DNA from: a virus
DNA length: 64,000 nucleotides
IMG/VR virus record: IMGVR_UViG_3300009009_000003
Coordinates: 1 to 64,000 of that record
Reading direction: 5' to 3' (one strand)
The position numbers and the translations under genes are program-made. Positions 12,670-31,953 of this stretch are shown in pieces. Numbering within the stretch: the first letter of the stretch is position 1; each line of letters begins with the position of its first letter. Below the pieces are notes generated by a model. That model made no database searches. It saw nothing but the letters and a program-made list of their open reading frames with translations, and was not told the DNA's origin.

Positions 12670-14892
12670 ATGATTTACCAGACAGGAACAGTTACAGTTA
12701 CCCACGGATCTAATACCGTAACAGGGTTAGGAACTAAGTTTCTGACTTATGTTAGTAAAGGAAATCTGTTCAAGATACAGGATGAAAGAGGTGTTTATTT
12801 TGTAGCTTCGGTTGATTCCGATACCCAAGTAACTTTAGTTTTCCCTTATAAAGGGTCAACAGGAAGCCTTCTTGATTACTCAATAATCGCAGATAAAACA
12901 CCTAATTTAGGTCTTCCTTTTATAGATCGAAGAGATCCGGATGCTGCTCAGGTTGTAAATGCTGCCTTGACTATGATTGATTATCAAGCAGGAGATTTTC
13001 TTGATTTTCAGTCTCTTACAACTGTTACCTATTCCGGTGAATCGAACTTTTTTATTCGAGGTGATTACCATACTGATGAATTATGTGATGGAAGAGTAAT
13101 AAGATTTGATGATGTTAGTGGAGATATGGTTCGTTATAATCTTGTTGACCACAGCTATATGTTTGAGGCATCTGTAAATGGAACGCCATCTTCTCTTTCA
13201 ATATCCTATGATAGTGTTGTCGGAGATGTTGATCCTGTAGGTTCTTATGATGTACTTCACAATATTACAAAGGGAAATTACGTATTTATAGGATCATTGG
13301 TTTCAGGTGAAGGTACAATTTCTATTGATCCTGATGAGCTTGGATACATGGGGGGAACAGAAGATTGGGGGGATAATGACATAATAAGAGTTTATGGCAT
13401 TACTCAATCAGTGGGTATAATTTCCTCAGTAACTACTTCTCAGGTAGTAGTAACATCCTCAGATTTGACTGGTTTTCTGTCAGGTGATTTGCTTTATAAT
13501 TATAATAAAGCAAACACCAGAACAATTCTTTCAGTTTCTTCAAATACGATTATGACAAATACTACTAATGATGATTGGGAAGCGGATGATTATGTGTATA
13601 CTGTACAAACAAAAGTAACTACATCCATGAATAATTTAATAGAAACAATATATTCAATAAGTTACGGAGCAAGAAGTCAGATAGGAGAGGACTCTGTAAA
13701 GGCAGAGCATATTGACTTCGGTTATGGTAGTAACCAAGTAGATGCTGAAAGTATTCCTTTTTCCTCAACCTATTTAGATTCTCTTGATGTTGAATCAGCC
13801 ATTGATGAAGTAAAAATTGATCTTACTGCACATATACTAAGCGGAGAAGGAGCACATGCAGGAACTTCCATATCTTTTGTGGATGATGGATCTGCTGTAG
13901 GACGACCACTAACTTCTACCAATGTAATGGATGCTATAAATGAGCTTAAAAGTCAAGTTGCCTATAGTCCCCATATTCAAAGCACAGTTACAGAAGATAG
14001 TGATAATGATTGGTATTTTACCAGTGATTCTTTTCTTTTGTATCCTTCTTCATTTTTTAATAGTGGTGAATGGTGGATAAGATTTGAAACTGGTGTAAAC
14101 ATAGGTGATTTGAAACCTTTGGACGTATTTGATTATGAAACAGGAACGTTTTATACAATAAGTGGAGAAGGATTTACTTATGATCCTAATGAAGGAGATC
14201 AATTTAGTTTAATATTGAAGAGTGTTGAAGCGGAAATAATAGGAGATTTTTCTTCCTATTATACCAAAACACAACTCCAAACATCAGGGGAATCAAATGT
14301 ACATTGGGGCAATATTAAAAGTGTTCCTTCTTCAATTACTAATCCAACATTAATAAGTAATCATAACAGTCTTAATAATTTAAGTTATGCCGCATCAGGG
14401 CATACAGGATTTGCTGCATCCTCACATACTCATACAGAATCACAGATAACTGATTTAGATCATTATAATTCAACGGATTTTGCTTCAGATTTTGCCTCTT
14501 CTGATTTAAATGATCTGGATACTAAAAACCATAGTGATCTTGGGGAGTTGGATTATGATTCATCAGGTCATACAGGATTTAAACCGTCAACTAAAAGTAA
14601 ATATACTGTTCAAATAAATTCTGGGGAAGATGTTCCTTCAGATTATGATTTAGTTATTGTTTATGGTCCTTCTGCGATTTCTGCAAGAAAAGTTACTTTA
14701 GGAACTTCTGATGGGCAGGAATTGGAAATAAGGGGAAAATGGGACATAACTTCTAATACTGTAAGATTGTATAGCGGAGAAAATTTAAGAATGTCAGGAG
14801 ATTTTATAATAGGTTCTTCTGATGTTATATACTTAGAATGGTTCTCAGGAGAGAATTACTGGTTAGAAAAATCAAGGATTACAAAAGCATAG
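12670..14892 (+). CDS. Tail fibre / baseplate-associated protein
   Basis: This 740-residue protein starts eight bases after the previous gene, with ribosome site GAGGTG. The N-terminus (YQTGTVTVTHGSNTVTGLGT) is a beta-sandwich type often found at the N-terminus of phage tail fibre or appendage proteins, where it attaches to the tail. The middle is a series of beta-rich segments with the V-x-S-A-I-D-E-V-K/E-L pattern common in fibres. The last part contains the H-T-G-F-A...H-T-H repeat (SSHTHTESQITDLDH) also seen in the two histidine-rich fibres at 22.7-28 kb. It probably forms an elongated trimeric appendage. The receptor is unknown. Confidence 0.7.
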   Translation: MIYQTGTVTVTHGSNTVTGLGTKFLTYVSKGNLFKIQDERGVYFVASVDSDTQVTLVFPYKGSTGSLLDYSIIADKTPNLGLPFIDRRDPDAAQVVNAALTMIDYQAGDFLDFQSLTTVTYSGESNFFIRGDYHTDELCDGRVIRFDDVSGDMVRYNLVDHSYMFEASVNGTPSSLSISYDSVVGDVDPVGSYDVLHNITKGNYVFIGSLVSGEGTISIDPDELGYMGGTEDWGDNDIIRVYGITQSVGIISSVTTSQVVVTSSDLTGFLSGDLLYNYNKANTRTILSVSSNTIMTNTTNDDWEADDYVYTVQTKVTTSMNNLIETIYSISYGARSQIGEDSVKAEHIDFGYGSNQVDAESIPFSSTYLDSLDVESAIDEVKIDLTAHILSGEGAHAGTSISFVDDGSAVGRPLTSTNVMDAINELKSQVAYSPHIQSTVTEDSDNDWYFTSDSFLLYPSSFFNSGEWWIRFETGVNIGDLKPLDVFDYETGTFYTISGEGFTYDPNEGDQFSLILKSVEAEIIGDFSSYYTKTQLQTSGESNVHWGNIKSVPSSITNPTLISNHNSLNNLSYAASGHTGFAASSHTHTESQITDLDHYNSTDFASDFASSDLNDLDTKNHSDLGELDYDSSGHTGFKPSTKSKYTVQINSGEDVPSDYDLVIVYGPSAISARKVTLGTSDGQELEIRGKWDITSNTVRLYSGENLRMSGDFIIGSSDVIYLEWFSGENYWLEKSRITKA

Positions 14893-14900
14893 GAGGATTT

Positions 14901-16742
14901 ATGAAAGTCGAACAAGTAGCACATATTTTAATGGGTGTATTTTGTACATTTTTAGTTATTCTTCTTTTCTCCGGATTACTGTATGCACAAGATACTCCCT
15001 GGATGTATGATTTATTTACACCAGATGGAAAGTTTAAAAAGTCCCTTGAAGTTACAGGAAGTGTAAATGCTACTACAGGAGTAACTGGAGGAAAAACTAC
15101 AGATGAATCCGGTTACTTTTTGCTATATGAAGAATCAGGAAGCAGCACACAAGGAATGGGATTTATGGGTCCGGCTGGTCCTGTTACTGAAGATAGGTAT
15201 TTTAGGCTTGTTTGGTTTGATTCCAGTACAATAGAAAACAGTATTTTTATTATTGGACCGGAATCCTCTGTTGCCGGAAAGAAAACCTATGCTTTAACTC
15301 CTGTAAATCTTACTTCATTAACTCAAAATGTGTATACTACAGGAACAGTGAGAGGGGGTAAATATACAAAAACAATTTCGGTAAATACTACCCTTACTGC
15401 TTCCGAATGTTATGATTCCATTATTTATGTTGACGAGAGTTGTACAGTAACTCTTCCGCCTGTTGCTACAGGTATGTTTATTCAATTTGCAATTAGAGGG
15501 GAATATACACTTACTGTAAATCCTGATGATTCAGATAGGTTGAAATTGGCTACAGGTACGGCTATGACTGATGGTGAATCATTGGAAATAATTAGTGGAA
15601 GTGCAGGGGCAAAAATACCCATTGCTTATGAAAGTAGTGATGGATTTCAGGTATTTAATGAGACAGGTGGTGGAACTGCTACAACTACATCATCTACCAC
15701 TGTAGCTTCAACTTCGTCCACTACTACCACTATTATAAATACTCCTACAGTTGTTACTGCTTCCATTACTGATATTGAGGATACTACCGCCACAGGAGGT
15801 GGTAATGTAACTTCTGATGGAGGATCTTCTGTTACTGCTAAGGGTGTTTGTTGGGCGGAAAGTACCGGTCCAGATTTAGATGATGATTGCACAAGTGATG
15901 GAACAGGAACAGGAACATATGTATCTTCTCTTACAGGCTTAACAGCAGAAACACATTATTATGTAAGAGCTTTTGCCACAAACTCATCCGGTACAGGGTG
16001 GGGTAGTGAAGAAGAATTTGATACAGAAGCAACACCAGGAGCTTATGATTTCCGTGAAGATTGGGATTCATATAGAGAAACATGGTATGCTTCTACTTGT
16101 GCTACACCTTATACCTGTACGGATGATCCCACAAGTTGGGATAGCACCTATACAGCTTCCCCCATTGTAGGAACAAATTCTTTGTTTGTGTCCGGTGATG
16201 TGGATACAGATTTTCGTTATATTAAATCTGCAATCGGAACAACATTCACTGGTGGGGATGAATTTTACATAACTTGGGCAGTTAAATGGTTAGATGCTAC
16301 GGCAGATTTTGATGATAGTGACCAACCAAATAGTCTTAGATTATACAGTGGAACACCAACTTCCACCTCTCTTCAAGGTTTCTTCTACTTGAGATGGGAT
16401 GAAGATTATACTCGTTTTGACAGAACAGGGTTTCAAAATGAATCTGCTTCATTAGGATTTTGGAGTACCGGATGGACTTCTTGGACTACTCCTCGTTACT
16501 TTAAAGTCAGATGGAAAATTTCTACAGCATCTTCCACTCCTTATAATGGAGAATGTCAAATGTGGTATAGTTCATCAGGTTCAGAAGGTACTTGGACAGA
16601 AGGATTCAATAGTACTGCTGTAAATACATATGGTGATGTTTCTGTGATAGGTATTAAAGGTGGTGATACGGGAAATGTATATTTAACAGGAGACATGATC
16701 ATTGATGATATTAGAGTATCCACTAGTGATATTAATTATTAA
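14901..16742 (+). CDS. Exported fibre-like protein with Thr/Ser linker, Ig/FN3-like and jelly-roll-like domains
   Basis: The start chosen is the ATG after AGGAGGATTT, not the earlier in-frame ATG at 14838, which lies inside the previous gene and lacks a ribosome site. The 613-residue product begins with a strong export signal (about residues 1-30: hydrophobic VFCTFLVILLFSGLLYA, then QD). Residues 30-255 are beta-rich, with a pyocin/fibre-like VTVNPDDSDRLKL segment. Residues about 260-285 are an almost pure Thr/Ser linker. An Ig/FN3-like domain follows (GVCWAESTGP...YYVRAFATNSSGTG), and then a C-terminal concanavalin-like domain ending IIDDIRVSTSD. A signal peptide in a late-region fibre-like gene is unusual. 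It may act on or at the infected cell surface rather than in the virion. Function is inferred only. Confidence 0.75.
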   Translation: MKVEQVAHILMGVFCTFLVILLFSGLLYAQDTPWMYDLFTPDGKFKKSLEVTGSVNATTGVTGGKTTDESGYFLLYEESGSSTQGMGFMGPAGPVTEDRYFRLVWFDSSTIENSIFIIGPESSVAGKKTYALTPVNLTSLTQNVYTTGTVRGGKYTKTISVNTTLTASECYDSIIYVDESCTVTLPPVATGMFIQFAIRGEYTLTVNPDDSDRLKLATGTAMTDGESLEIISGSAGAKIPIAYESSDGFQVFNETGGGTATTTSSTTVASTSSTTTTIINTPTVVTASITDIEDTTATGGGNVTSDGGSSVTAKGVCWAESTGPDLDDDCTSDGTGTGTYVSSLTGLTAETHYYVRAFATNSSGTGWGSEEEFDTEATPGAYDFREDWDSYRETWYASTCATPYTCTDDPTSWDSTYTASPIVGTNSLFVSGDVDTDFRYIKSAIGTTFTGGDEFYITWAVKWLDATADFDDSDQPNSLRLYSGTPTSTSLQGFFYLRWDEDYTRFDRTGFQNESASLGFWSTGWTSWTTPRYFKVRWKISTASSTPYNGECQMWYSSSGSEGTWTEGFNSTAVNTYGDVSVIGIKGGDTGNVYLTGDMIIDDIRVSTSDINY

Positions 16743-16751
16743 GGAGTAACA

Positions 16752-19700
16752 ATGAAGAAACTATTATTCCTATTATTATTTATTCCAAGCCTGTGTTTAG
16801 GTGCAAATAGATATGTGGGACCTACAGGCAGTTCTGGAACAGGAACGTCATGGTCATCCCCCATGGCACTTCCAAACGGATCTTCAGCATGGACAGCAGG
16901 TGATGTTTATTACCTTGCTGATGGTAATTATAATTTAACAAGTATGGTCACTATAGGATGCACAGGAACGGCAACTTCATCTAGCTACATAACTATAAAA
17001 AAAGCAACTGCTTCAGATCATGGAACAGATACAGGGTGGAGTACATCAATGGGTGATGGGCAAGCCATATTTAATGGATGGGCAAATATGGAGAATCAAT
17101 ATGCATTGTTTCTTATAGTAGATCCTTATACTGTAATTGATGGGCAGGTAGGGGAAAATGATGGAAGTGTGACACCACATGGAATAAAGCTTGTTATGTC
17201 CCCATCTTATGTAGCTGATAGGGCTAATAGAGGAATACGAATAGAAGGTGGTTTGGATTACATAACTTTAAAACACATAGAATTACAGGGGGCTGGTTGT
17301 AATCTTCCAGGTACAGATGTTCGACATGATGCCATTTATCATTCTACAACCACAGCCAGCAATCCTGGTGTTGGGCATTATTATGGATATTTGTATAGCC
17401 ATGATTGGAACAGGTGTTGTGGGTTACTAAATGGTGTTACAAATATGATGTTTGAACATAATTTTGTTGCCAGAGTAGGGTCAGGGGATGCAGGTGTTCA
17501 TTCAAATGGAATTGCTTCTTCTTACTGTTATGGTAATCTTCAAAATACTTATAGATATAACACCTTTAAAGATATTGCAGGGACAAATGCTGTTGCTTGT
17601 AAGGATAATTATCTTACAGGAGATCCAACATGGATTTGTAGTGGTGAAACAAGAACCGTTCCTAGACCAAATTATAATATATATTTCTATGGAAATTTAT
17701 TCTATACTACATCTTCCACTGTAACTTCCCCAATAGGAAGTTCACAATCATACCGTCCACACTACTCTGATGGAACTTTAACAAATACAGGTTGTGATGA
17801 TAGTTATGATTGGTTTTACTACAATAATACTCATGTTGATTTGAATTATGGAGAAGAAACAAGTGTTCATAATATGACGGTAGGAAACTATCAAACAGGT
17901 AAAACAAGCTATGCCTATAATAATTTATTTGTGAATAGTAGTAATATAAGTTGGTCTGTCCAAGATGCCCCTGATGCCTACATTATACATAATTATAATT
18001 CATATGGTAATTCTAGAGATAGTTCCACTCAAAACACAGGTACAGGAAACAATGAGTCAGGTGGGCAGTATAATGTTGCGACTTCTATATTTTCTAATTA
18101 TTCTGGAAGAGATTACCGATTGTACTATGCTACTGACCCAGGTGCTCAATTGGCAGATCCGTATAATTACGATCCTTTGGGGAACATTAGAGGGGGGGAC
18201 GGTGCTTGGGATAGAGGAATGTATGAATATACAGGAACACAAACAATTCACTATATCCGATCAGGAGCATCTGGAGATGGATCAAATTGGACAAATGCTT
18301 TAAATGCTCTTCCTGCTGATTTGGAAAGAGGGCATACATATTATATAGCCGATGGAACATACAGTGGATATACTTTTAATGATGGTTTAGATGGCACAAA
18401 ATACATCACCATTAAGAAGGCAACTGCTTCAGATCATGGGAATAATACAGGATGGCCTATTGATAATAGCTATGGTGATGGTTCTGCCACATTTACAGGG
18501 GCAATAAATTTTAATACAGGATATTATATATTTGATGGGGCAACTAGAGGAACAGATTGGCAGTCTGGTTACGGATTTGTAATAGATAGATCGGCAGGAA
18601 CAAGTGGTCCTTGTATAGGAATTCCTGCATATGGAACAAGCACAAATGTTCAAAATGTATCTGTAAAGTATTGTGAGTTGATAGGATTTGTTACAGGTGA
18701 TACAAATGCTCCTGACGGATTTTTTATGAACCCAACAGGGGCAGGTAATTCAAACATATCTATGGGGTACTGCTATATTCATGACGTAGCCAGATGCCCA
18801 TTTTTGGGTAGAAATGCTTCTGATGTTACTATTGAATATTGTTATATAGCAAGAAATGAATCTACTTCTCCACAACACGCAGAAGGAATTTCCGCATATA
18901 ACGCTGGTAGTGGTCCAACAAATAGATGGACAGTTAGATGGAACATATGGAAGGATGTAGAAGGAACTGGAATTATAGTTTTTTCTGGAGACTCGTGGAA
19001 GGTGTATGGAAATTTATTCTTCCATACGACACTTTCATCTAATCAAGGGATAGGTCAAGGATGTGTAGCAACATGGACTGGTTATTCAGTTACTAATGCT
19101 CAGGTGTATAACAATACTGCCGTTGATCTTAGATTGGCTCCTGATACTAATACTACCGGTATTTATTTTAGTAATTCGTCCTCTAATACTGGAAATGTGG
19201 CCTATAATAATATTTTTTATAACTGTGAGGATGTATCTTTAGATACTTATTTAACTCATAGTTATAATGCCTTTAGTAACGCAAGCAGTGGTTCTTTGGC
19301 AGAAACTGGAACAGGGCAATATAATCTTTCCTCTTCTATTTTCACAAATTACGCAAATGATATTTTTACACTTGCTTCGTCCACCGATCCTGGCATGACA
19401 TTATCCGCTCCTTATAATACGGATATGTTGGGAATTTATAGAGGGGCAGGGGGTGTTTGGGATAGAGGAGCATATGAGTATGAGGGTTCAGCACAAACAA
19501 ATAGTAGATATGTAAGACAAGGGGCATCAGGTTCAAATAATGGATTGGATTGGACTAATGCATGGACACAACTACCCACCTCCTTAGTTAGAGGATATAC
19601 TTATTATATAGCTGATGGAACATATCCAGGATATACTTTTGATGATGCTGTAGATGGAACTAAATATATAATAATAAAAAAGGCGACTACTTCAGATCAC

Positions 19701-21602
19701 GGAACTGGAACTGGATGGAACAATTCGTATGGGGATGGACAGGCAACATTTTCGAAATCATTTTCCAGTGGGGATACTATATTATTAACTTTTTCAACAA
19801 GTTATTGGGAGTTTAATGGACAAGTGGGTGCAGGAAAAGGTACTGTCACACCGTATGGATTTGTATTAAATACAGATTCAGCAATACCGGCTGTTCAAAC
19901 AAGTTATAATTCTCAACAAATATATTTAAATCCAAGCACTGCTGTTTCAAATATAATAATAAAATATACAGAACTTGATACAAATGATGAAGGAACTGCT
20001 GAAACAGGAGAAGATGGAAGACGGTCCATTATTCGACAATTCTATGTAAATAATGGATCATCGGCTAATCTTACAATAGCCAATAATTATTTTCATGATA
20101 CAACTGGTGTTCATATAATATTTCAGGCTAAGGACTCCACAATAGAAAATAACTATTTTGCCAGAAGATATACGGCTCAATATTGGGATTCCAGCTCCAG
20201 TTCATATCAAGGTATACATGGAGAAGCTATATCATTCAGGCCCACCTGTTCAAATATTGTTGTTCGATATAATATTTTTGAGGATGTGCGTGGTACAGGT
20301 ATTGTAATGGCCCAGGATTCAACTGGGTTCACAGACTTCTATTTCTATGGAAACTTAGCTTTTACGACAGATCCATCAAAATATTATACAAGCAATGGTT
20401 TTTTTGCTACAGGTGATACTAATGATGGAATGAGAGAGGCATATGTATATAATAATACCATGGTTGATTATTCTTCGAGTGGACAAACTGGAATAAGATT
20501 TCACAATGATGGTGGAACAAACTATGCCTATAATAATTTGTGGTATAATTGTAGTGGACTTAATTTTTTGGGAGTAACTCGTGATTATAATGCTGCCGAT
20601 ATAGATTTGGGAGAGGAACATGACCAAATAATTGATTCTACTTATTTTGTTAGTTATGCAGGGGATGATTTTAGACTTTCTAAAGCTACAGAAGCAGGAA
20701 TGAACCTTAATTCTATGACCCCACCGACAACAACCACAACTGTAACAGCAACATCAACCACTACAAGTAATCCAACTTCTTCTTCGACTTCTTCTTCTAC
20801 TTCAACTATTTATGAGGGTGCTCCTGATTGCACTAAAGACAATCTAAAATTCTTTGATAATTTTGAACATCCTACTTTACTATCAGGTGGTAATTATAAT
20901 GATGGTATGTACAATATAGAGGAGGGGGGAGGATGCACAGATCATACGGATAAAACAGGGGATGTTTATGTGGAAAATACTTATGACCATGCAACTGATT
21001 CTACCCATTTATGTACAAATGTTTGTGTTAATTCCTCTCAAAAAGTAAATGGAAATTATAGTTTATACTTTCCTTGTAATGGAGATCGTCTTATATTTGG
21101 ATATGGTTCTTCTTATAATGCCACTCCTCATATTGATTGGAGATTAGGTACAGTTAAGTTTTTCTTTAGAATAGAACACTATTTAGATAATGGTGGTTCA
21201 GACAGTGGTTCGTTATTTCATGCTTCAAAGGGATCAAATGGAAAACAAGGATATATTCAATGTGCCATTTTTGGAACAGGTGGCCCAAGGGTATTTCGTT
21301 TGTCTTATAATAATTATGATGGGGGTGGTAGTCAATATGTCCAAACAAGCACCTATGATAATTTAAGAGCAGATAAATGGTATTATGCCGTTTGTAATTA
21401 TAGAATAGGCACAACTACACCCACATTGAGAGTAAAAGTTTGTGATGTTAACGGAACAAATTGTTCCACGGCAACTTCAAATGTTCAATTAAGACCCATG
21501 ACATATGGAGAATTGTCAACTTTCGATCTAGGAGAATGGAACCATCAAGATTTGAGTGGATGGATAGATGATCTATATGTTTATGGGGATTGGAGGGATT
21601 GA
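16752..21602 (+). CDS. Exported three-module right-handed beta-helix protein with C-terminal lectin-like domain
   Basis: This 1616-residue protein has a textbook signal peptide (MKKLLFLLLFIPSLCLG|A) and ribosome site AAGGAGTAAC. It contains three homologous modules, each opening with (R)YV/IR-G-A-S-G-x-x-W-T-N-A and YYIADGTYxGYTF, followed by the ITIKKATASDHG repeat and many N-x-x-x-N-N-T beta-helix coils. Module 1 spans about residues 20-495 and closes with WDRGMYEYTG. Module 2 spans about 500-905 and closes with WDRGAYEYEG. Module 3 (about 917-1316) lacks that closing motif and runs into a Thr/Ser linker (about 1317-1355) and a C-terminal jelly-roll-like domain (to WIDDLYVYGDWRD). Such helices often bind or cleave polysaccharides, but I see no certain catalytic residues. 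Confidence 0.8.
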   Translation: MKKLLFLLLFIPSLCLGANRYVGPTGSSGTGTSWSSPMALPNGSSAWTAGDVYYLADGNYNLTSMVTIGCTGTATSSSYITIKKATASDHGTDTGWSTSMGDGQAIFNGWANMENQYALFLIVDPYTVIDGQVGENDGSVTPHGIKLVMSPSYVADRANRGIRIEGGLDYITLKHIELQGAGCNLPGTDVRHDAIYHSTTTASNPGVGHYYGYLYSHDWNRCCGLLNGVTNMMFEHNFVARVGSGDAGVHSNGIASSYCYGNLQNTYRYNTFKDIAGTNAVACKDNYLTGDPTWICSGETRTVPRPNYNIYFYGNLFYTTSSTVTSPIGSSQSYRPHYSDGTLTNTGCDDSYDWFYYNNTHVDLNYGEETSVHNMTVGNYQTGKTSYAYNNLFVNSSNISWSVQDAPDAYIIHNYNSYGNSRDSSTQNTGTGNNESGGQYNVATSIFSNYSGRDYRLYYATDPGAQLADPYNYDPLGNIRGGDGAWDRGMYEYTGTQTIHYIRSGASGDGSNWTNALNALPADLERGHTYYIADGTYSGYTFNDGLDGTKYITIKKATASDHGNNTGWPIDNSYGDGSATFTGAINFNTGYYIFDGATRGTDWQSGYGFVIDRSAGTSGPCIGIPAYGTSTNVQNVSVKYCELIGFVTGDTNAPDGFFMNPTGAGNSNISMGYCYIHDVARCPFLGRNASDVTIEYCYIARNESTSPQHAEGISAYNAGSGPTNRWTVRWNIWKDVEGTGIIVFSGDSWKVYGNLFFHTTLSSNQGIGQGCVATWTGYSVTNAQVYNNTAVDLRLAPDTNTTGIYFSNSSSNTGNVAYNNIFYNCEDVSLDTYLTHSYNAFSNASSGSLAETGTGQYNLSSSIFTNYANDIFTLASSTDPGMTLSAPYNTDMLGIYRGAGGVWDRGAYEYEGSAQTNSRYVRQGASGSNNGLDWTNAWTQLPTSLVRGYTYYIADGTYPGYTFDDAVDGTKYIIIKKATTSDHGTGTGWNNSYGDGQATFSKSFSSGDTILLTFSTSYWEFNGQVGAGKGTVTPYGFVLNTDSAIPAVQTSYNSQQIYLNPSTAVSNIIIKYTELDTNDEGTAETGEDGRRSIIRQFYVNNGSSANLTIANNYFHDTTGVHIIFQAKDSTIENNYFARRYTAQYWDSSSSSYQGIHGEAISFRPTCSNIVVRYNIFEDVRGTGIVMAQDSTGFTDFYFYGNLAFTTDPSKYYTSNGFFATGDTNDGMREAYVYNNTMVDYSSSGQTGIRFHNDGGTNYAYNNLWYNCSGLNFLGVTRDYNAADIDLGEEHDQIIDSTYFVSYAGDDFRLSKATEAGMNLNSMTPPTTTTTVTATSTTTSNPTSSSTSSSTSTIYEGAPDCTKDNLKFFDNFEHPTLLSGGNYNDGMYNIEEGGGCTDHTDKTGDVYVENTYDHATDSTHLCTNVCVNSSQKVNGNYSLYFPCNGDRLIFGYGSSYNATPHIDWRLGTVKFFFRIEHYLDNGGSDSGSLFHASKGSNGKQGYIQCAIFGTGGPRVFRLSYNNYDGGGSQYVQTSTYDNLRADKWYYAVCNYRIGTTTPTLRVKVCDVNGTNCSTATSNVQLRPMTYGELSTFDLGEWNHQDLSGWIDDLYVYGDWRD

Positions 21603-21603
21603 C

Positions 21604-21906
21604 ATGAAAAAGATACTTATAATTCTATTTTTAATTTCTTTCCCTTCTATTGCTTTTTGTCAATATGATAAGGATATGTTGGGGGTAACTAGAAATGGTG
21701 ATGGTATTTGGGATAGAGGAGCATATGAATATGTAGGAAGTCCTGTTTCTACATCTAGTTCCAGTTCTTCAACTACAACTACCATTACGTCTACTTCTAC
21801 TTCCAGTACTACAACTTATATAGGTCCACCATCTACAACCACAACTATGCCTAATTTATTCGGTGCACCAAATAGATTAATAATACAAGGTGGTATTATT
21901 AGATAA
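21604..21906 (+). CDS. Small exported protein carrying a WDRGAYEY module end
   Basis: This 100-residue protein starts two bases after the previous stop, with GGAGGG six bases upstream; an earlier in-frame ATG at 21568 lies inside the upstream gene. It has its own signal peptide (MKKILIILFLISFPSIAFC|Q). The mature N-terminus (YDKDMLGVTRNGDGIWDRGA) matches the closing motif of modules 1 and 2 of the upstream beta-helix protein, which is missing from its module 3. The rest is a Thr/Ser-rich tract and a short Pro-rich C-terminus. It looks like the displaced end of module 3 that has gained an export signal. Function is unknown. Confidence 0.65.
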   Translation: MKKILIILFLISFPSIAFCQYDKDMLGVTRNGDGIWDRGAYEYVGSPVSTSSSSSSTTTTITSTSTSSTTTYIGPPSTTTTMPNLFGAPNRLIIQGGIIR

Positions 21907-31554: not shown

Positions 31555-31953
31555 TTAGGGGATAATAACAATCTTGAAGTTGAACGGGGAACTAAAAGCA
31601 TTTGAGAAGTCAAAATCACCAGTGACTTCATTGCTATTACCTGATTCAAGATTATTTACTTTATTGAAAGCAGTGCAAACAAAGTAAAGAGTTTGTATAG
31701 TTCCTTCCCATTCTGGTTTATTAAGAGTTATTTCTTCTTCATAAGAAGATTGCTGAGATACAAAATTAATATCAGAAATCTTTGTGTAAGGTCCACCAGA
31801 AGTGGTTGAATAGTACAAACGCCAACCTCCAAAATCAGGCTTTGCTGTATCAACTGTATTTTGCTCCCATTGAAATGTTTTGGTTACAGGAGCAGCATAA
31901 GCGAATGTAGCCAGAAAAATAAAAATAATACAGGCAAATAATACTTTTTTCAT
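31555..31953 (-). CDS. Exported fibronectin-type-III-like protein
   Basis: This 132-residue protein has a clear signal peptide (MKKVLFACIIFIFLATFAYA|A) and AAAGGAGGTGAT upstream. The mature part is a single FN3/Ig-like domain (FQWEQN...GWRLYYSTTSGGPYTKI...YFVCTAFN...ESGNSNEV), typical of bacterial secreted or surface proteins. Its start overlaps the upstream HTH gene stop (ATGA). A phage-encoded periplasmic or surface protein on the early strand could alter the host envelope or block further infection; that is inference. Confidence 0.7.
   Translation of the reverse strand: MKKVLFACIIFIFLATFAYAAPVTKTFQWEQNTVDTAKPDFGGWRLYYSTTSGGPYTKISDINFVSQQSSYEEEITLNKPEWEGTIQTLYFVCTAFNKVNNLESGNSNEVTGDFDFSNAFSSPFNFKIVIIP

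What the first reader, a model, noticed from the sequence alone, without database searches (positions are those of the whole stretch)
20640..21760. The missing end of beta-helix module 3 is in the next gene
Modules 1 and 2 of the 1616-residue protein close with a D-x-L-G...W-D-R-G-x-Y-E-Y-x-G motif. Module 3 breaks off just before it and goes into a linker plus lectin-like domain. The following 100-residue exported protein begins its mature part with exactly this motif. A domain insertion seems to have split module 3, and the cut-off end gained a signal peptide.
Basis: seen in the sequence. Interest (0 to 1): 0.5.

Follow-up and report, generated by a model that had tools for sequence, protein, structure and literature searches.

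The report
Beta-helix module split across two genes
In an uncultured phage, the last 26 residues of a repeated sugar-enzyme-like protein module are missing from the big protein and sit, behind what looks like their own export signal, at the start of the next small gene, as if the module had been cut in two and both halves kept.

Summary
A profile built from 27 outside relatives matches module 3 of the 1616-residue protein (P1) over positions 26-400 and the 100-residue protein (P2) over 401-426: no gap, no overlap. Elsewhere modules run on in one chain: all 13 strong matches in 395 genomes of one phylum reach position 422 or beyond. One fairly strict pattern found no second stand-alone copy in viral contigs or those 395 genomes. 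Between the halves lie a Thr/Ser linker, a weakly LamG-like domain, a stop and a signal peptide. P2 has a good ribosome site inside the end of P1. That one module was split is well supported. One insertion is the simplest route, but no orthologue of P1 was found, so two separate deletions are not excluded. The likeliest working is that both parts are exported and the segment closes module 3 from outside, as autochaperones do in trans. That step is inference: the truncated module still models as a pectate-lyase-like helix, so P2 may be a leftover.

The parts
14901..16742 (+). upstream protein with Thr/Ser linker, likely exported (by eye; the screen did not list it); 613 aa from the start that has an AGGAGG site
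16752..21602 (+). P1: signal peptide, three right-handed beta-helix modules, Thr/Ser linker, weakly LamG-like domain
16803..18242 (+). module 1, complete (closing segment 18159-18233)
18243..19499 (+). module 2, complete (closing segment 19410-19484); AF2 model mean pLDDT 90, closest fold by VIA-align pectate lyase Pel9A
19500..20714 (+). module 3, ends at profile position 399/400, closing segment missing
20715..20819 (+). Thr/Ser-rich linker that stands where the closing segment of module 3 would be
20820..21599 (+). LamG/concanavalin-like C-terminal domain (weak match)
   Evidence: Laminin_G_3 E 1.2e-4, below cut-off
21592..21596 (+). GGAGG ribosome-binding site of P2, inside the last codons of P1, 7 bases before its ATG
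21604..21906 (+). P2: 100-residue protein with signal peptide, carrying the missing segment
21604..21660 (+). signal peptide of P2 (MKKILIILFLISFPSIAFC), cleavage site not predicted by a program
   Evidence: sequence; coarse hydropathy screen
21661..21738 (+). closing segment, profile positions 400-425 (401-426 in the external profile)
21739..21906 (+). Thr/Ser linker and short tail; by eye like the low-complexity end of the whole relative L001

Best explanation
P1 and P2 together are one three-module beta-helix protein whose third module was cut between its body and its 26-residue closing segment. A stretch with a Thr/Ser linker, a LamG-like domain, a stop codon, a ribosome site and a signal peptide now lies at the cut. 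P2 is the detached C-terminus: closing segment, Thr/Ser linker and tail. Both products begin with Sec-type signal peptides, and one base separates P1's stop from P2's start, so they should be made together and exported to the same place. There the segment most likely docks on the open end of module 3 and closes it without a covalent bond. Shown: the abutment, the uninterrupted relatives, the ribosome site. Inferred: one-step insertion, export, docking. Split alone: about 0.8.
For: Exact abutment 400|401 with a window-free profile and 399|400 in the tool's search. When the joined chain is aligned with 17 rows (modules 1 and 2 and 15 relatives), 15 rows are gapped over just the linker-domain-stop-signal stretch; L013 and L044 have a few stray residues placed in it. 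Closing segment in chain in 13 of 13 matches at E <= 1e-40, from 9 of 395 genomes (at most four candidates a genome were scored, and one genome is the seed); in 29 of 29 matches at E <= 1e-10 in 13 motif-found genomes; in 16 of 18 in 15 motif-found viral records (the others are half of a match whose other half reaches 424, and a weak partial match). Relatives with further C-terminal sequence or modules keep the segment before it (L025, L038, L026). GGAGG with 7-base spacer. Precedent: in autotransporters the C-terminal autochaperone of a beta-helical passenger rescues in trans (passage of PMC5767081 citing BrkA, Ssp, EspP, Pet).
Against: No orthologue of P1 or P2 was found, so conservation of P2 cannot be tested. 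The truncated module 3 still models as a beta-helix: 30 of 39 ten-residue blocks up to residue 390 have mean pLDDT 80 or more (the nine others 52-79), then 68 and 47, and it aligns to Pel9A at Z 27.8 against 30.0 for module 2, so it may do without the cap. The drop at its end may also come from the alignment, whose rows I had cut before the segment. No target-site duplication or unusual microhomology at the junctions. In the module 2 model the segment is mostly irregular chain, not a coil, and its last residues (411-419) fall to a mean pLDDT of 65. No coordinates were available to measure its packing. Insertions of 3 or more residues at this site are rare in relatives, 2 of 43 alignments.
Confidence: 0.47

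Rival explanations
1. Split as above, but P2 is a leftover: the insertion closed P1 with a LamG-like domain and the cut-off end is merely still translated and exported, with no job.
For: Truncated module 3 models well without the segment. P2 has no stand-alone counterpart in the searches made, as a young remnant would.
Against: P2 has an intact frame, a good ribosome site, an in-frame signal peptide joined within a residue of the segment, and an unchanged WDRGAYEY. In the largely unselected sample the segment is never missing from the chain (13 of 13).
Confidence: 0.25
2. Two separate deletions in a tandem array: one fused module 3 to a following lectin-like gene and removed its end; another removed the body of the next beta-helix gene, joining that gene's signal peptide to its own closing segment. 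The segment in P2 would then belong to a fourth module.
For: Relatives carry runs of genes that start with signal peptides (by eye), one of them lying just before the beta-helix gene (L014, L024, L025), so the order gene-end, stop, signal peptide is natural. Multi-module proteins occur (L026, G012).
Against: Both break points would have to fall at the same profile position of about 400. No remnant of a fourth body is left in the record at E <= 1. The genes before the beta-helix gene in those relatives show no detectable sequence likeness to P1's domain.
Confidence: 0.18
3. The segment is a sorting or anchoring tag (choice-of-anchor Q type) and P2 is a free-standing anchor.
For: Weak NCBIfam match to NF041518, E 0.04 for P2 and 0.032 for P1.
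Against: Both scores (14.2, 14.5) lie under the cut-off of 25. In P1, L026 and G012 the segment lies inside the chain between modules, where a C-terminal anchor makes no sense.
Confidence: 0.06
4. Assembly or sequencing artefact joining unrelated pieces.
For: Single metagenomic record; reads not available.
Against: Both junctions are in frame, both frames are open, and a chimera would have to hit the same profile position twice.
Confidence: 0.04

Closest known systems
Right-handed beta-helix proteins of the pectate lyase type (Pfam Beta_helix PF13229; fold of polysaccharide lyase family 9 Pel9A, 1RU4)
   Same: Pfam match above cut-off; module 2 model aligns to 1RU4 at Z 30.0, rmsd 2.4, 317 residues, model 1-414.
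   Different: Phage-encoded, three modules in a row, the third split between two genes. Foldseek's own first row is a lacto-N-biosidase (E 1.4e-6), with 1RU4 seventh but highest in TM-score among the 50 listed. Lyase activity and the calcium/lysine site not tested.
Autochaperone domains of autotransporters (T5aSS)
   Same: C-terminal end of a beta-helical passenger; reported to work when supplied in trans (passage in PMC5767081).
   Different: About 110 residues against 26 here; belongs to proteins with a C-terminal translocator barrel, which P1 lacks in the Pfam search.
choice-of-anchor Q domain (NCBIfam NF041518)
   Same: The end of the model falls on the same closing segment.
   Different: Below cut-off in both proteins; segment internal in multi-module proteins.
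Single-module beta-helix proteins of uncultured phages (L001, L003, L007, L013)
   Same: Signal peptide (by eye), one module, closing segment, then 23 to 43 further residues.
   Different: One uninterrupted gene.

Membership tests
Pfam Beta_helix (PF13229) | score above curated cut-off | tested here: met
   P1 41.5 bits against 25.9
[quoted passage not shown]
   module 2 model to 1RU4 Z 30.0, rmsd 2.4, 317 aligned, next entry Z 26.8; truncated module 3 Z 27.8, rmsd 2.9, 317 aligned, tied with 5OLR, 5OLQ and 5MQP; turns not counted
Polysaccharide lyase family 9 / pectate lyase | sequence match to a PL9 enzyme | tested here: inconclusive
   profile search of PDB chains listed five matches at E <= 0.01, the best three glycoside hydrolases of family 110, none a PL9 enzyme; Pfam gave only Beta_helix
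Polysaccharide lyase family 9 / pectate lyase | catalytic lysine and calcium-binding aspartates | not tested
   features from a passage of PMC6627557; the aligner printed no residue table
choice-of-anchor Q (NF041518) | score above curated cut-off | tested here: not met
   14.5 (P1) and 14.2 (P2) against 25
Autotransporter with autochaperone | C-terminal translocator beta-barrel | tested here: not met
   only Beta_helix found in P1 at E <= 1; C-terminal domain weakly LamG-like
Autotransporter with autochaperone | C-terminal segment helps the helix fold, also in trans | not testable with these tools
Gene fission of a single module | two halves abut without gap or overlap | tested here: met
Gene fission of a single module | uninterrupted orthologue in a close relative | tested here: inconclusive
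   whole modules in the relatives sampled, but no orthologue of P1 found

The most novel reading that the evidence does not exclude
P2 is a detached cap: a natural split beta-solenoid in which the 26-residue closing segment, made from its own gene and exported separately, completes the third module of P1 in trans and so makes its closure a separate, controllable step.
Probability: 0.35. Interest if true: 0.65.

Novelty: new variant of a known kind. Interest (0 to 1): 0.45.

Why it matters
Ends of beta-helices are thought to matter for their folding (recalled, and the autochaperone passage). A natural case where the last segment has its own gene and its own export signal would give a direct test of whether the closing segment is a detachable cap, and a ready-made split-protein pair. 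It also shows how a phage protein can take up a new domain inside a module without losing either end of it.

Tried and rejected
Chance likeness of the motif: rejected. Target-site duplication or microhomology at the cut: longest shared word 6 bases, which 54% of random pairs of places reach; no support. Donor of the inserted stretch: the upstream gene (14901-16742) shows no detectable likeness to the LamG-like domain with low-complexity filtering on; the E 5e-5 seen with the filter off was not looked at residue by residue and could come from the Thr/Ser linkers. That domain had no relative in viral contigs by peptide pattern, in 6 related viral records, in 395 genomes or in the PDB by sequence. 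Orthologues of P1, the 634-residue frame, the 135-residue protein and a piece of the J protein in viral contigs, of P1 in phage records and plasmids, of another J piece in phage records: none; the viral-contig searches reach close relatives only. P2 itself had 9 viral motif relatives, all in whole beta-helix frames, and none in phage records. Insertion hot spot at the cut: not one (2 of 43 alignments with 3 or more extra residues). Fold of the LamG-like domain: pLDDT under 50 over most of it, so not interpreted; GH136, PL6 and tail-spike structures also match the module fold and were not separated by function. L045, the only other short frame with the motif (72 codons, no Met), carries sequence from before the segment too; likely a broken gene. 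Origin of P2's segment from its nearest motif by DNA: module 2 73%, L003 72%, module 1 68%; too short to decide.

Literature: listings only, and no paper; none of the listed titles or abstract starts that I saw describes a split beta-helix with an exported closing segment. Passages only of PMC5767081 and PMC6627557. This is a thin search and no claim of absence from print.

Full report
WHAT IS THERE. The window is the first 64 kb of a 90,376-base viral record. Its left part is a lambda-like tail region: minor tail protein L, a J-like fibre protein, a tail-fibre gene. Then come a likely exported protein (14901-16742), P1 (16752-21602) and P2 (21604-21906), and further genes, two of them long and repetitive by eye. 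P1 has a signal peptide, three beta-helix modules, a Thr/Ser linker and a C-terminal domain that matches Laminin_G_3 weakly. P2 has a signal peptide, the WDRGAYEY stretch, a Thr/Ser linker and a short tail.

CHECK OF THE OBSERVATION. I aligned the modules and P2, collected relatives from viral contigs and genomes and built a profile from 27 relatives without any window sequence. It matches module 1 over 16-426, module 2 over 28-427, module 3 over 26-400 and P2 over 401-426; 2000 shuffles of P2 reach at most 14.0 bits against 40.9. The separate tool search of the whole record, with a profile that also held the three window modules, gives 23-399 and 400-425 and nothing else at E <= 1. So P2 holds exactly what module 3 lacks.

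IS IT UNUSUAL. The first collection of relatives was made by the motif itself and so is biased. I therefore searched 395 genomes of one phylum with the whole profile: 13 matches at E <= 1e-40 in 9 genomes, one of them the seed genome, and all 13 run to position 422 or beyond (at most four candidates a genome were scored). In 13 genomes reached through the motif, 29 of 29 matches at E <= 1e-10 run to 420 or beyond, 20 of them starting by position 25. In 15 viral records 16 of 18 matches do; one exception is half of a match whose other half reaches 424 (L028), the other a weak piece; three rows read through one stop codon. In a re-scan of 44 hits that begin by position 120, 42 reach 423 or more; the two others are module 3 and that same half match. 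The 44 include the 27 model sequences, the three window modules, and one module of L026 twice. In 43 of 44 loci the motif stands at residue 399 or later of its frame; the exception is L045, a 72-codon frame without Met; these 44 loci are 36 distinct places, eight viral ones having been fetched twice. A DNA pattern for a Lys-rich start followed 31 to 41 codons later by WDxGAYE finds P2 in the window, nothing in viral contigs (the window's own record may be left out there) and nothing in 395 genomes. The pattern demands ATGAARARR and exact motif codons, so other starts would be missed.

HOW IT AROSE. The joined chain was aligned with modules 1 and 2 and 15 relatives; in 15 of these 17 rows the only large gap is the linker, domain, stop and signal peptide, and in L013 and L044 a few residues are scattered into it. 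One insertion of such a stretch explains both break points at once. The order gene-end, stop, signal peptide is natural in these phages: a gene with a signal peptide, in part lectin-like by eye, lies directly before the beta-helix gene in L014, L024 and L025, though none of them resembles P1's domain by BLAST. Two separate deletions remain possible but must hit the same profile position. There is no target-site duplication, no detectable donor and no orthologue of P1.

HOW IT MAY WORK. Module 2 models with mean pLDDT 90 and pTM 0.92; its closing segment (residues 390-414) is mostly extended or irregular chain at the end of the helix, with block means of 94 and 88 and 65 for the last nine residues of the model. 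By VIA-align the closest solved fold is pectate lyase Pel9A, Z 30.0, rmsd 2.4, 317 residues, model 1-414 against chain 40-425; Foldseek put a lacto-N-biosidase first and Pel9A seventh. Module 3 without its segment has 30 of 39 ten-residue blocks at 80 or more up to residue 390 (93 there in module 2, 84 here), then 68 and 47 where module 2 has 94 and 88; its alignment had 18 rows, cut before the segment, against 30 whole rows. It aligns to Pel9A with Z 27.8, rmsd 2.9, 317 residues, chain 40-411, tied with three other entries. The missing piece is thus the final edge. Since the relatives sampled keep it, a cap role is plausible; since the truncated model still folds, it may not be essential. One base lies between P1's stop and P2's start, with GGAGG 7 bases upstream inside P1, so the two should be made together. 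Export of both rests on signal peptides seen by eye and by a coarse hydropathy screen, which also lists out-of-frame stretches. The precedent for a cap of a beta-helix acting from outside is the autochaperone, which rescued BrkA, Ssp, EspP and Pet in trans according to a passage I read in PMC5767081.

WHAT IT IS NOT. It is not a choice-of-anchor Q domain by score, and not an autotransporter. PL9 membership is open: the fold agrees, sequence does not show it, the active site was not tested.

VERDICT. Observation confirmed; the split of one module well supported (about 0.8); single insertion likely; trans capping a reasonable, testable inference (about 0.35 to 0.45). One case, one uncultured phage, no expression data.

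Noticed in passing
record G000 67705-70539 (L058:3705-6536): A 944-residue frame before the capsid gene matches Hom_end_hint, Hom_end and LAGLIDADG_3: an intein with homing endonuclease, by position perhaps in the large terminase (not tested).
   Followed up: partly
record G000 77532-83730 (L058:13532-19727): Six consecutive genes between the capsid and tail genes; four of six match Pfam families: two glycosyltransferases (families 9/1 and 2) and two methyltransferases. With the Thr/Ser-rich linkers of 14901-16742, P1 and P2 this hints at a phage-borne O-glycosylation cassette.
   Followed up: partly
L022 6990-8336 and 9023-10450: Two different proteins of one phage, the second beta-helix-like by its WDIGAYEF end, finish in the same tail, ATLTRSASSGIGLLQ: a shared C-terminal tag.
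   Followed up: no
viral loci L014, L022, L024, L025: In otherwise unlike phages the beta-helix gene sits among neighbours that start with signal peptides by eye: a recurrent phage cassette of exported proteins.
   Followed up: partly
window 14838-14901: The 634-residue frame starts without a ribosome site; the ATG at 14901 has AGGAGG 4 bases upstream, so the protein is likely 613 residues with its hydrophobic stretch near the N-terminus.
   Followed up: yes
window 31555-31953 (-): Another small protein of the phage with a signal peptide; a similar-looking one follows the beta-helix gene in L014 (8494-9141). No Pfam match at E <= 0.01.
   Followed up: no
G012:C43 (genome of L035, archaeal MAG): A 5767-residue open frame with nine matches to the module profile at E <= 1e-10.
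   Followed up: no
records of L008, L009 and L013 (G021, G006, G022): The profile match runs through one in-frame stop codon; in L008 and L009 the frame opens at the mature start, so the signal peptide may lie beyond a TAG.
   Followed up: no
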